Source: an uncultured Cetobacterium sp.
Lineage (GTDB): Bacteria > Fusobacteriota > Fusobacteriia > Fusobacteriales > Fusobacteriaceae
Direction: 5' to 3'
Length of the DNA stretch: 64,000 nt
NCBI RefSeq assembly: GCF_947072685.1
Contig: NZ_CAMTIK010000001.1
Coordinates: 62,001 to 126,000 of the forward strand
Shown: positions 38,751 to 64,000 of the stretch, one piece after another
Position numbering within the stretch: position 1 is the stretch's first letter
Layout: each line of letters begins with the position of its first letter
Made by a program: the position numbers and the translations under genes
Notes under the pieces: generated by a model
Told to the model about the DNA's origin: nothing
The model's input: only the letters and a program-made list of their open reading frames with translations
Database searches by the model: none

Positions 38751-39989
38751 ATGACTAATTTATCTACAAAAAGTAAATTATTGCTAGGAATTCAACATGT
38801 TTTAGCTATGTTTGGTGCTACTGTTTTAGTTCCTTTTTTAACTGGGTTGAACCCTTCGATCGCTCTTCTTTCAGCTGGTATTGGAACTCTTCTTTTCCAT
38901 CTGTGCACGAAAGGAATTGTACCCGTTTTTTTAGGATCATCTTTTGCTTTTATTGGAGCTCTTTCTCTTGTTTTAAAAGAGGAGGGAATAGGTGCGATTA
39001 AAGGTGGAGTAATTTCTGCTGGTTTTGTCTATATCTTCATGTCTTGTATGGTTAGAGTCTTTGGGGTAGATAAAATAAAATCATTTTTCCCGCCAGTTGT
39101 AGTTGGACCAATTATTATGGTAATCGGTTTAAGACTTAGCCCTGTGGCTCTATCTATGGCTGGATATTCAAATGGACACTTTGATTTAAAAAGCTTAGTT
39201 GTGGCTCTTATTGTAGTTATAACAATGATAAGTATATCTATCTTAGAAAAATCATTTTTTAGACTTGTACCTATCTTAATCTCTGTTATTCTTGGATATA
39301 TCGTTTCAATTTTTTTAGGAATGGTTGATTTTACTCCTATTGCTAATGCAAACTGGATTGGATTTTCTTCTGAAGCTCTAAAAGATTTATTGACTCTACC
39401 TAAATTTTCTCTCACAGCTATTCTTGCTATCGCACCTATCGCTCTTGTTGTTTTTATTGAGCATATCGGGGATATAACCACCAATGGAGCTGTTGTTGGA
39501 AAAGATTTCTTTAAAAATCCTGGAATTGCTAGAACTTTACTAGGTGATGGTGTAGCAACTGTTGCTGCCGGTCTTATTGGAGGTCCAGCTAACACTACAT
39601 ATGGTGAAAATACTGGAGTTCTGGCTGTAACTAAAGTCTATGATCCAGCTATATTAAGAATTGCTGCTTGCTATGCAATCGTTCTTAGCTTTATTGGAAA
39701 ATTTGGAGTTATTTTACAAACAATTCCTACTCCAGTTATGGGTGGAATCTCTATTATTTTATTTGGTATGATAGCATCAGTTGGAGTTAGAACTGTAGTA
39801 GATGCGGAGTTAGATTTTTCTCACTCAAGAAACCTACTTATTGCATCTTTAATCTTTGTATTGGGAATTGCTATTGATAATATTATCATTTGGAAAACTG
39901 TTTCTCTATCAGGGCTAGCAATTGCTGCTCTTATTGGAGTTATTCTTAATAAAATACTTCCAAAAGATAGATTGGATGAAGAAAAATAA
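38751..39989 (+). CDS. uraA: Uracil/xanthine permease family transporter (UraA-like)
   Basis: NCS2 family (LLGIQHVLAMFGATVLVPFLTGLNPSIALLSAGIGTLLFHLCTKGIVPVFLGSSFAFIG; GGPANTTYGENTGVLAVT). Start at ATG 38751 after GGAGG. Confidence 0.93.
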   Translation: MTNLSTKSKLLLGIQHVLAMFGATVLVPFLTGLNPSIALLSAGIGTLLFHLCTKGIVPVFLGSSFAFIGALSLVLKEEGIGAIKGGVISAGFVYIFMSCMVRVFGVDKIKSFFPPVVVGPIIMVIGLRLSPVALSMAGYSNGHFDLKSLVVALIVVITMISISILEKSFFRLVPILISVILGYIVSIFLGMVDFTPIANANWIGFSSEALKDLLTLPKFSLTAILAIAPIALVVFIEHIGDITTNGAVVGKDFFKNPGIARTLLGDGVATVAAGLIGGPANTTYGENTGVLAVTKVYDPAILRIAACYAIVLSFIGKFGVILQTIPTPVMGGISIILFGMIASVGVRTVVDAELDFSHSRNLLIASLIFVLGIAIDNIIIWKTVSLSGLAIAALIGVILNKILPKDRLDEEK

Positions 39990-58428: not shown

Positions 58429-59052
58429 TTATCTTCCCCAAGTATCTGGAGTTTTATTCCATTTTAGAGCTATTTCTGCCTCTTCAGAATCTAAATAGTT
58501 CTCCTCTGTAGCAACCTCTACCAATGAGGCAAAGTTCGAAAGTGTTATCCAAGAAATATCATCTGCCGAGAAATTTTTATATGCCTTTTCAAACTCATAT
58601 GAGAATATTGCTAGAACTTCAACTTCGATAGCACCTGCTTCTCTTGCAGCCGCAACTGCTTTTATAGAACTTCCTCCTGTTGAAATAAGATCCTCTATTA
58701 TGATTACTTTCTTCCCAGCAAAGTCAGCTCCTTCTATTTGTCTTCCAGCACCATGAGCCTTCTTTTCCCCTCTTATGTAAGCCATTGGAATATGCATCTC
58801 TTGAGCTATAAATGCCGCCCAAGGAATTCCTGCTGTTGCAGTTCCAGCTACAATATCGAAATCTTTCTCTTTTAAAACCTCTATAAATGCATCTACTACA
58901 ACTTGTCTTTCTTTTGGAAATCCTATCATTTTTCTATTATCACAATAAATTGGACTCTTAATTCCTGATACAAATGTAAACGGTTCCTTTACATTTAATC
59001 TCACTGCCTCTGTTCCTAATAATGATTTTGCTATATCTTTTGCTCTAGACAT
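58429..59052 (-). CDS. pyrE: Orotate phosphoribosyltransferase
   Basis: PRPP motif (KVIIIEDLISTGGSSIKAVAAAREAGA). Confidence 0.96.
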   Translation of the reverse strand: MSRAKDIAKSLLGTEAVRLNVKEPFTFVSGIKSPIYCDNRKMIGFPKERQVVVDAFIEVLKEKDFDIVAGTATAGIPWAAFIAQEMHIPMAYIRGEKKAHGAGRQIEGADFAGKKVIIIEDLISTGGSSIKAVAAAREAGAIEVEVLAIFSYEFEKAYKNFSADDISWITLSNFASLVEVATEENYLDSEEAEIALKWNKTPDTWGR

Positions 59053-61926: not shown

Positions 61927-62727
61927 TTAGTTACAACTACAACCTAGATTTTCTTTTGGATTTATATCTACTATTATCTTTGAATCAAATACCGGTCCAT
62001 CATGACAAACTTTTTTCATTCCATCCAAAGTTTTTATTGAACATCCCACACAAGCTTTCACACCACACGCCATTTTTTCTTCAAGTGAAACTTCACAGAA
62101 AACTCCAGCTTCAAGAGATGTTTTTGCCACAGCTTCCATCATTTTATGAGGTCCACATGTTTGAACCATATCAATCTTATTCTCTTTTAAAACCCTAGAC
62201 AATACCGATATTACATTCCCCTTTTCTCCAACAGAACCATCATCTGTTGTTATATAAGTTGTAACTCCTTCAAGATTTAAATTTTTTAATATCTCTAAAG
62301 CACCTGAATTTCTACCACCAGCTATAAAAATAACTTCATTATTTTTTTTAAGATTATCTATTAAAAGTTTTGTCGGAGCTATTCCCATTCCCCCTCCAAC
62401 AACCACACATTTTTTCTCTGAAATCTCTGTTTTAAACCCATTTCCAAGAGGTCCTTGAATATTTATAACATCCGCAGCTTTTAAAGTTGAAAATTCTTTA
62501 GTCCCTCCACCTTTTACCTCATAGTAAAACTCTAAGATATTTTTATCTTTATCCACAAAATGTAAGCTGATTGGTCTTCTTAAAACTCTTATTTCATTTT
62601 TTACTTTTAGCATAAAAAACTGTCCAGCTTTTGAATTTTGTATAGCTTTTTTCGACTCTATTTTCATCAAATAGTAATTATCTCCCACCTGATAATTTTC
62701 TAGTATTTTACAATCCTCTAAAAACAT
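61927..62727 (-). CDS. pyrK: Dihydroorotate dehydrogenase electron-transfer subunit
   Basis: FAD/NAD domains and C-terminal [2Fe-2S] cysteines (CEVSLEEKMACGVKACVGCSIKTLDGMKKVCHDGPVFD). Confidence 0.95.
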   Translation of the reverse strand: MFLEDCKILENYQVGDNYYLMKIESKKAIQNSKAGQFFMLKVKNEIRVLRRPISLHFVDKDKNILEFYYEVKGGGTKEFSTLKAADVINIQGPLGNGFKTEISEKKCVVVGGGMGIAPTKLLIDNLKKNNEVIFIAGGRNSGALEILKNLNLEGVTTYITTDDGSVGEKGNVISVLSRVLKENKIDMVQTCGPHKMMEAVAKTSLEAGVFCEVSLEEKMACGVKACVGCSIKTLDGMKKVCHDGPVFDSKIIVDINPKENLGCSCN

Positions 62728-62756: not shown

Positions 62757-63824
62757 TTATTTCTTTATATCTTTATTACAATAGTAGCAGTATATATGTT
62801 TTCCAGTTACTACATATTTATTTTCTGTCTCTTCAAATTTTGTTATACATTTTTCATTTCCACATATAACTGTATCTGAAGTTTTTATATTTTTTTCTAT
62901 TTTACCTTTGCTCTCTATTTTTACTTTATCTAAAGCTATTGCAAATATTGATTCTCTTGTAGGTACACCATTTGCTGCCTGAACAAAATATTTTGCGTGC
63001 TTTGTTTCATCTAAATCAATCTTTATCTCATCCACTCTTGGTAAAGGATGAAGAATTATCATATCCTCTTTACACTTTCCTACAACGCTATCTTTATCTA
63101 TTACATATACACCTGCAACCTTCTCATAATCTGCTTGTGCATCAAATCTCTCTTTTTGTATTCTTGTCATATACATAACATCTATTTCGTGAAGAATCTG
63201 CTTATAGTCTTCAATCAAATGATACTTTATCCCTTTCTCATCTAACTCCCTTGTTATGTACTTCGGTATTTGAATAATCTTCGGAGCTACAAAATAAAAC
63301 TCGCAATTGAATAGTTGAAGTGCCTTTGTTAAAGAATGGACTGTTCTCCCATATTTCAAGTCCCCTATAAAAGCTATTTTTTTATTTTCAATCTCTCCAA
63401 ACTCCTTTTGAATTGTATATATATCTAAAAGAGTTTGACTTGGATGCTCGTTAGCACCATCACCTGCATTTATTACTGGTACTTTTGCTATATCTGCTGC
63501 AAATCTTGCTGCCCCATCTCTATTGTGCCTCATTACAATTATATCTGAATACGCTTCCGTCATTTTTATTGTATCTCTTAGACTCTCACCTTTTTTTAAT
63601 GATGTTGCATCTGGAGAATCAAATCCCAGTACTTTTGCACCTAATCTATAGGCTGCTGAAGTAAATGATAGTCTTGTTCTAGTAGAAGGTTCGAAAAACA
63701 AGCTCCCTACAATTTTATTTTTTAAAAGTTCTACCTCGTTTTTTTCTTCTAACTCTTTTGCCACTCTTAAAATCTCTAAAATATCCTCTTTAGTAAAATC
63801 TTTCATCGAAATAAAATCTCTCAT
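62757..63824 (-). CDS. pyrB: Aspartate carbamoyltransferase with C-terminal PyrI-type zinc-binding domain (PyrB-PyrI fusion lacking the PyrI allosteric domain)
   Basis: FFEPSTRTRLSFTSAAYRLGAKVLGF; C-terminal CGNEKC-x(n)-CYYC as in the PyrI zinc domain. Confidence 0.93.
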   Translation of the reverse strand: MRDFISMKDFTKEDILEILRVAKELEEKNEVELLKNKIVGSLFFEPSTRTRLSFTSAAYRLGAKVLGFDSPDATSLKKGESLRDTIKMTEAYSDIIVMRHNRDGAARFAADIAKVPVINAGDGANEHPSQTLLDIYTIQKEFGEIENKKIAFIGDLKYGRTVHSLTKALQLFNCEFYFVAPKIIQIPKYITRELDEKGIKYHLIEDYKQILHEIDVMYMTRIQKERFDAQADYEKVAGVYVIDKDSVVGKCKEDMIILHPLPRVDEIKIDLDETKHAKYFVQAANGVPTRESIFAIALDKVKIESKGKIEKNIKTSDTVICGNEKCITKFEETENKYVVTGKHIYCYYCNKDIKK

Positions 63825-63835
63825 TTTTCCTCCTT

Positions 63836-63880
63836 AAAAAAAAAAGAATAGAAATTACAAATTAATTGTAACTTCTATTC
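63836..63880 (-). terminator. Transcription attenuator (intrinsic terminator) immediately upstream of pyrB
   Basis: Minus strand GAATAGAAGTTACAA-ttaat-TTGTAATTTCTATTC (15-bp stem, one G.U) followed by T10, then the pyrB SD AAGGAGG. Confidence 0.85.
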
Positions 63881-63975
63881 CTAATATTAAAATTAAAAGA
63901 TAAAAATAATGAAAATATAGTTTTTTTCTTTTTTTGAATTAAATATATAAAAAGACTTAACATTTTTTTCTTCAC
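63862..63975 (-). CDS. Putative pyr operon leader peptide (37 aa, GTG start) ending in the loop of the attenuator
   Basis: SD AGGAGGG + 7 nt + GTG; translation MKKKMLSLFIYLIQKKKKTIFSLFLSFNFNIRNRSYN*; stop TAA (63864-63862) in the terminator loop. Confidence 0.65.
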   Translation of the reverse strand: MKKKMLSLFIYLIQKKKKTIFSLFLSFNFNIRNRSYN

Positions 63976-64000
63976 TTTTTTACCCTCCTAAATTTTTTAC

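What the first reader, a model, noticed from the sequence alone, without database searches (positions are those of the whole stretch)
63836..63990. Candidate UTP-sensing leader-peptide attenuator in front of the pyr operon (pyrL/pyrBI-like architecture)
Seen in sequence, minus strand: AGGAGGG-7 nt-GTG opens a 37-codon ORF (MKKKMLSLFIYLIQKKKKTIFSLFLSFNFNIRNRSYN). Codons 19-32 (63921-63880) contain 25 U out of 42 nt, directly before a 15-bp intrinsic terminator. The ORF reads through the whole 5' arm of that hairpin and its TAA stop sits in the 5-nt loop. The T10 tract then runs into the pyrB SD (AAGGAGG). Established knowledge: E. coli pyrBI attenuation uses a translated leader, U-rich pausing when UTP is low, and ribosome invasion of the terminator hairpin. 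Inference: at low UTP, RNAP stalls in the U-rich stretch, the leader ribosome catches up, occupies the stem and prevents termination. I see no PyrR-type anti-antiterminator element and no pyrR gene here. The same layout in a distant, AT-rich lineage would be either convergent or a wider class of tiny pyr leader genes. The ORF is not in the supplied ORF track.
Basis: partly seen in the sequence, partly recalled or inferred. Interest (0 to 1): 0.87.

Follow-up and report, generated by a model that had tools for sequence, protein, structure and literature searches.

The report
Leader-ORF attenuator before fusobacterial pyrimidine genes
A tiny reading frame that overlaps a transcription stop signal sits before the pyrimidine-making genes of a Cetobacterium; the same arrangement guards both pyrimidine gene sets (pyr and carAB) in most Fusobacteriaceae genera and recurs before pyrB in many Brachyspira, so these bacteria probably sense their UTP level by racing a ribosome against RNA polymerase, as E. 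coli does at pyrBI.

Summary
A GTG-started 37-codon ORF with a strong Shine-Dalgarno (SD) runs through a 25-of-42-U tract, enters a 17-bp terminator hairpin and stops in its loop, just before the pyrB SD. A promoter-like site lies 10-38 bp beyond the window end, after the neighbouring gene's stop.

In 1.24 Mb of this genome, 456 terminators were found; only two have an SD-led ORF ending in the hairpin zone plus a gene directly downstream: pyrB and carA. Such an ORF occurs in 33 of 56 fusobacterial pyrB and 31 of 40 carA regions that have a terminator (0.11 and 0.05 expected from shuffles). The peptide drifts, the frame stays open, the hairpin covaries. Where carA is duplicated, argJ-linked copies lack the leader. 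True PyrR occurs only in three genomes, which lack it. Brachyspira pyrB has a related hairpin and ORF with a weaker SD.

Best explanation: pyrBI-type, UTP-responsive, ribosome-dependent attenuation of pyr and carAB. UTP dependence, translation and termination are inferred, not measured. In Cetobacterium the U tract can also pair with the leader's own ribosome-binding site, a possible second layer.

The parts
63983..63989 (-). Shine-Dalgarno of the leader ORF (AGGAGGG, 7 nt before GTG)
   Evidence: Sequence; AGGAGG or GGAGG kept in all Cetobacterium relatives
63862..63975 (-). Leader ORF, 37 codons, GTG start, TAA stop in the hairpin loop
   Evidence: open frame, SD and GTG start kept in Cetobacterium, other peptides of the same design in other genera
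63880..63921 (-). U-rich tract, 25 U of 42, presumed UTP-sensitive slow zone for RNA polymerase
   Evidence: U enrichment before the stem in 72 leaders, mean 0.574 against 0.344 for generic terminators
63844..63882 (-). Terminator hairpin, 17 pairs, 5-nt loop at 63861-63865
   Evidence: covariation in the relatives
63836..63845 (-). T10 tract of the terminator (first two T overlap the 3' arm)
63829..63835 (-). Shine-Dalgarno of pyrB (AAGGAGG)
62757..63824 (-). pyrB, aspartate carbamoyltransferase catalytic chain with a PyrI_C-like zinc tail; first gene of the controlled operon
61927..62727 (-). pyrK, electron-transfer subunit of dihydroorotate dehydrogenase B
   Evidence: Pfam PF10418, PF00175, PF00970
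60990..61913 (-). pyrD, dihydroorotate dehydrogenase
   Evidence: Pfam PF01180
60241..60966 (-). pyrF, OMP decarboxylase
   Evidence: Pfam PF00215
59045..60247 (-). pyrC, dihydroorotase (amidohydrolase family)
   Evidence: Pfam PF01979 and operon context
58429..59052 (-). pyrE, orotate phosphoribosyltransferase
   Evidence: Pfam PF00156 and operon context

Best explanation
A ribosome-dependent transcription attenuator of the pyrBI type, one of two found in this genome (pyr operon and carAB). RNA polymerase starts just upstream of the leader and a ribosome loads on the leader SD. With ample UTP, polymerase crosses the U-rich tract fast, the hairpin folds ahead of the ribosome and transcription ends before pyrB. 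With scarce UTP, polymerase slows in the U-rich tract and the ribosome closes up; because the reading frame extends into the hairpin, the ribosome covers its 5' arm, the terminator cannot form, and the operon is transcribed. Shown here: anatomy, conservation, hairpin covariation, target genes, absence of PyrR. Inferred: that the hairpin terminates, that the ORF is translated, that UTP is the signal.
For: Genome-wide specificity: of 456 terminators in 1.24 Mb, only pyrB and carA have an SD-led ORF ending in the hairpin zone plus a downstream gene (45 more terminators in a further 100 kb add none). Conservation far above shuffles: 33 of 56 pyrB against 0.11 expected, 31 of 40 carA against 0.05. 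Stop codon in the hairpin or within 30 nt past it in nearly all leaders. U enrichment directly before the stem. Frame kept, peptide loosely constrained: pN/pS 0.60 and 0.55 against 0.17 for pyrB itself. Hairpin covariation: 98.9% of cells pair in the true register, with 26 cells in 8 pairs changed on both sides, against 0-5 in other registers. argJ-linked carA paralogs lack the leader while the other copy has it. PyrR above cut-off only in three genomes, whose pyrB has no leader. Same detector finds E. coli pyrL. Published: a ribosome at a stop codon close to a terminator represses it (PMC4824070).
Against: No transcript, termination, translation or UTP measurement. Phe and Ile codons occur in 69 of 72 leaders, so composition alone does not exclude amino-acid sensing. 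Leptotrichia, g12 and some other relatives lack the leader. 38% of the genome was not scanned. Chance estimates ignore shared ancestry. The Shine-Dalgarno in Brachyspira is weak.
Confidence: 0.82

Rival explanations
1. The hairpin is only the 3' terminator of the upstream aminotransferase gene and the ORF is accidental.
For: No other terminator was found between the upstream stop (about 64046) and pyrB, so the hairpin may also end upstream read-through.
Against: A promoter-like site and an SD-led ORF lie between the upstream stop and the hairpin; the same unit stands before carA; ORF and hairpin are kept together across genera.
Confidence: 0.03
2. Amino-acid attenuator: the leader ribosome stalls at Phe, Ile or Leu codons when that amino acid is short.
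For: Phe and Ile are frequent in the leaders, present in 69 of 72.
Against: The targets are pyrimidine genes, and the argJ-linked carA copies are free of it. The ORF runs into the terminator, whereas amino-acid attenuators keep their terminators more than 20 bp past the leader gene (PMC4824070). No single residue is fixed; U-rich codons are the common factor.
Confidence: 0.04
3. Leader translation controls the terminator, but the sensed signal is not UTP: for example general translation capacity, CTP, PRPP, or an unrecognised RNA-binding factor.
For: The ribosome-overlap geometry alone does not name the signal. The genome has no CTP synthase match, so its pyrimidine pools may be unusual.
Against: The U-rich tract sits where slow UTP addition would matter, and C is rare there. 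Only pyrimidine operons carry the layout in the scanned genome. No Rfam family matches the leader.
Confidence: 0.1
4. PyrR-type attenuation with a missed regulator or binding site.
For: PyrR regulates pyr operons in many other bacteria (established knowledge).
Against: No PyrR above cut-off in this genome; the three genomes that have it lack the leader at pyrB. No Rfam match at gathering score.
Confidence: 0.01

Closest known systems
E. coli pyrBI attenuator with leader gene pyrL (b4246)
   Same: Short SD-led ORF that overlaps an intrinsic terminator directly before pyrB, with U-rich stretches before the stem.
   Different: No recognisable sequence similarity in peptide or hairpin by inspection (E. 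coli stem GC-rich, here AT-rich). The E. coli ORF ends 27 nt past the hairpin; here the stop is in the loop. Here carAB has the same device, while the E. coli carAB review describes initiation control and UTP-dependent reiterative transcription (PMC6245113). The E. coli leader shows no excess pairing of the RBS with the U tract.
Amino-acid leader-peptide attenuators (trpL, hisL, pheL type)
   Same: Translated leader and intrinsic terminator before a biosynthetic operon.
   Different: Those terminators lie more than 20 bp past the leader gene and competing structures are controlled by ribosome pausing (PMC4824070); here the ORF enters the terminator itself.
PyrR-dependent attenuation of pyr operons
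   Same: Terminator before pyr genes (established knowledge).
   Different: No PyrR above cut-off in this genome; PyrR occurs only in three g3 genomes, whose pyrB regions lack the leader.

Membership tests
pyrBI-type UTP-sensitive attenuator | SD-led short leader ORF upstream of a pyrimidine operon | tested here: met
pyrBI-type UTP-sensitive attenuator | Reading frame extends into or past the terminator stem | tested here: met
   TAA in the loop here; stop in the hairpin zone in most relatives
pyrBI-type UTP-sensitive attenuator | Intrinsic terminator between leader and first structural gene | tested here: met
   Sequence and fold, covariation; termination itself not measured
pyrBI-type UTP-sensitive attenuator | U-rich transcript just before the terminator | tested here: met
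   25 of 42 U; mean 0.574 in 72 leaders against 0.344 for generic terminators
pyrBI-type UTP-sensitive attenuator | Low UTP raises read-through, depending on leader translation | not testable with these tools
   needs transcription or reporter experiments
pyrBI-type UTP-sensitive attenuator | Common descent with enterobacterial pyrL (not needed for working like it) | not tested
Amino-acid leader-peptide attenuator | Terminator well separated (more than 20 bp) from the leader stop codon | tested here: not met
   stop lies inside the hairpin; criterion from PMC4824070
PyrR-dependent attenuation | pyrR gene in the genome | tested here: not met
   no match above the curated cut-off in G000
Known riboswitch or other Rfam leader | Match to a curated RNA family | tested here: not met
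   none at gathering score; best sub-threshold match 20.3 against 48.5 bits

The most novel reading that the evidence does not exclude
In Cetobacterium the U-rich tract does two jobs: besides slowing polymerase when UTP is low, its RNA pairs with the leader's own SD and start codon. Fast transcription at high UTP would then close the leader's ribosome-binding site before a ribosome loads, so UTP would set a time window for ribosome loading, not only a catch-up race. SD plus start are predicted 9-15% unpaired in the nine distinct Cetobacterium pyrB leaders, against 44-59% with the tail shuffled (at most 1 of 60 shuffles as low) and 26-35% with synonymous codons resampled. The effect is also seen in a few other pyrB leaders, is weak at carA and absent in several genera.
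Probability: 0.22. Interest if true: 0.75.

Novelty: new member of a known kind. Interest (0 to 1): 0.6.

Why it matters
UTP-sensing leader attenuation is, to my knowledge, documented experimentally in enterobacteria; [quoted passage not shown] The same design on both pyrimidine operons across most Fusobacteriaceae genera, and before pyrB in Brachyspira, would explain how these bacteria, nearly all without PyrR, control pyrimidine synthesis. [quoted passage not shown] It adds a class of unannotated small genes.

Tried and rejected
Rfam search: nothing. A first terminator detector that stepped hairpin length by two misplaced odd-length hairpins, including the one in question; it was replaced. 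My hand-written bracket string for the covariation count was two columns out of register; the +2 slide in the same output is the true register, and one search confirms it. An alignment with three loci taken on the wrong strand was discarded. Considered and rejected: upstream-gene terminator, amino-acid sensing, PyrR, known riboswitch (see rivals). A conserved-peptide function was rejected because the peptide is unrelated between genera and loosely constrained within Cetobacterium. Literature: no paper in the held library was found to describe this leader in Fusobacteria; the F. nucleatum transcriptome paper PMC11005410 holds none of the terms searched. The library lacks most subscription journals, so an earlier description is not excluded.

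Full report
Setting. The window is part of a Cetobacterium-like genome (close relatives carry that name; family-wide search). On the minus strand it ends with pyrB-pyrK-pyrD-pyrF-pyrC-pyrE. The leader lies directly before pyrB at the very end of the window.

Observation. Sequence beyond the window (L002) shows that the upstream gene, an aminotransferase of class V, ends at about 64046, and that a promoter-like TTGATT-17-TATACT with an extended -10 lies at 64038-64010. The -10 box and the following stretch ending in G(T/C)GTAAAAAA are kept in other Cetobacterium; carA leaders have a TTGACA/TATACT promoter-like site in the same place. These are consensus matches, not mapped starts.

Specificity inside the genome. 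In 1.24 Mb of the genome there are 456 intrinsic terminators by my criteria, 125 of them with a gene start within 140 nt downstream. Only two combine an SD-led ORF of 15 or more codons ending in the hairpin or up to 25 nt past it with a downstream gene: pyrB here and carA (L130/L243). Two other ORFs that end at a hairpin have no downstream gene. A further 100 kb with 45 terminators, and the flanks of four uracil/xanthine-permease genes, added none. About 38% of the genome was not scanned.

Conservation. pyrB 5' regions were collected from Fusobacteriales and Brachyspirales and carA regions from Fusobacteriaceae. Among distinct regions with a terminator, an SD of 5 or more bases plus an ORF of 25 or more codons ending within -15 to +25 of the hairpin is present in 33 of 56 pyrB and 31 of 40 carA regions, against 0.11 and 0.05 expected from dinucleotide shuffles. 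The shuffles ignore shared ancestry, so they measure rarity by chance, not independent origins; but the peptides differ between genera. With the SD rule relaxed further loci qualify, such as the g5 group with a long SD spacing and the stop in the hairpin; a few relaxed hits are ends of ordinary genes (L037, L043) and should not be counted. Leptotrichia (g21), g3 and g12 lack the leader. In g14, where carA lies about 4 kb upstream of pyrB on the same strand, the leader sits before carA and not before pyrB. Brachyspira pyrB regions keep a hairpin with the same outer GGAAT...ATTCC and mostly an overlapping ORF, but with a weak SD or none: none meets the strict rule, and 13 of 25 have an SD of 4 or more bases under the relaxed one.

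What is under selection. In Cetobacterium the leader frame is open while the other two frames hold 2-6 (pyrB) and 3-9 (carA) stops; pN/pS is 0.60 (pyrB leaders) and 0.55 (carA leaders) against 0.17 for pyrB itself. So the frame is kept and the peptide is loosely constrained. The hairpin covaries: in the true register (slide +2) 98.9% of cells pair and 26 cells in 8 pairs changed on both sides, against 0-5 cells in the other six registers; RNAalifold agrees. The 45 nt before the stem average 57% U in 72 leaders against 34% (sd 9) before generic terminators of this genome, where A exceeds U.

Which signal. The targets are pyrimidine genes. Genomes with two carA genes give a natural control: copies behind argJ have no leader (L120, L250, L252 with ArgJ by Pfam; L123 and L126 by the same upstream sequence), while the other copy has one (L244-L246, L251). 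PyrR above its cut-off is found only in three g3 genomes, next to a divergent pyrB; their pyrB regions, and the two of their carA regions examined, show no leader. Phe and Ile codons occur in 69 of 72 leaders, so composition alone cannot exclude amino-acid sensing, but the position of the stop does not fit that type (PMC4824070).

Mechanism. Best reading: UTP-dependent slowing of polymerase in the U tract lets the leader ribosome close up and cover the 5' arm of the hairpin. The E. coli pyrL locus, run through the same detector, shows the same layout. Shown: anatomy, conservation, covariation, targets. Inferred: termination, translation, the UTP response, coupling.

A possible second layer. 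The fold of the whole leader pairs the SD and start with the U tract. In Cetobacterium pyrB leaders this pairing exceeds shuffles and mostly exceeds synonymous recoding; over 38 pyrB leaders the mean unpaired probability is 0.20 against 0.37 shuffled and 0.30 recoded, and 16 loci reach 0.05 or lower by shuffling; carA is weaker (5 of 34) and E. coli pyrL shows none. This is a lineage-specific lead, not part of the main claim.

Novelty. All testable defining features of a pyrBI-type attenuator are met, so I file it as a new member of that kind in new phyla, with carAB as an added target. No earlier description was found in the papers searched, which is not proof of absence.

Noticed in passing
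L130 (own genome, G000:C21:30400-31700), upstream of carA: A second leader of the same design before carA: 49-codon SD-led ORF whose stop is in the 5' arm of an AT-rich hairpin.
   Followed up: yes
window 62757-62930, C-terminus of pyrB: The catalytic chain of aspartate carbamoyltransferase carries a fused PyrI_C-like four-cysteine zinc tail (PF02748, 23.5 bits against a cut-off of 23.4; similar to 2yww_A), apparently without the PyrI nucleotide-binding part; g8 genomes have a separate PyrI-like ORF.
   Followed up: partly
whole genome G000 and relatives: No CTP synthase (PF06418) match in this 99.8% complete genome and in 28 other Fusobacteriales genomes, some of them single-contig (G014, G036, G037, G091), while close relatives have it. 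How these make CTP is unexplained; masked stretches are not excluded.
   Followed up: partly
window 63921-63983 and Cetobacterium relatives: The leader SD and start codon are nearly complementary to the U-rich tract of the same leader: a possible anti-RBS hairpin.
   Followed up: partly
L120, L123, L126, L250, L252: Arginine-linked carA paralogs directly behind argJ have no leader or terminator, unlike the pyrimidine-type copy in the same genomes.
   Followed up: yes
L007, L008, L154-L176 (Brachyspira): Spirochaete pyrB about 60% identical to the Cetobacterium one carries a similar GGAAT...ATTCC hairpin and mostly an overlapping ORF; transfer of pyrB together with its leader between the phyla is possible but was not tested with a tree.
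   Followed up: partly
own genome, e.g. window about 38775-39875 (+): Eight uracil/xanthine permease family (PF00860) genes in a 2.15 Mb genome, one of them in the window.
   Followed up: no
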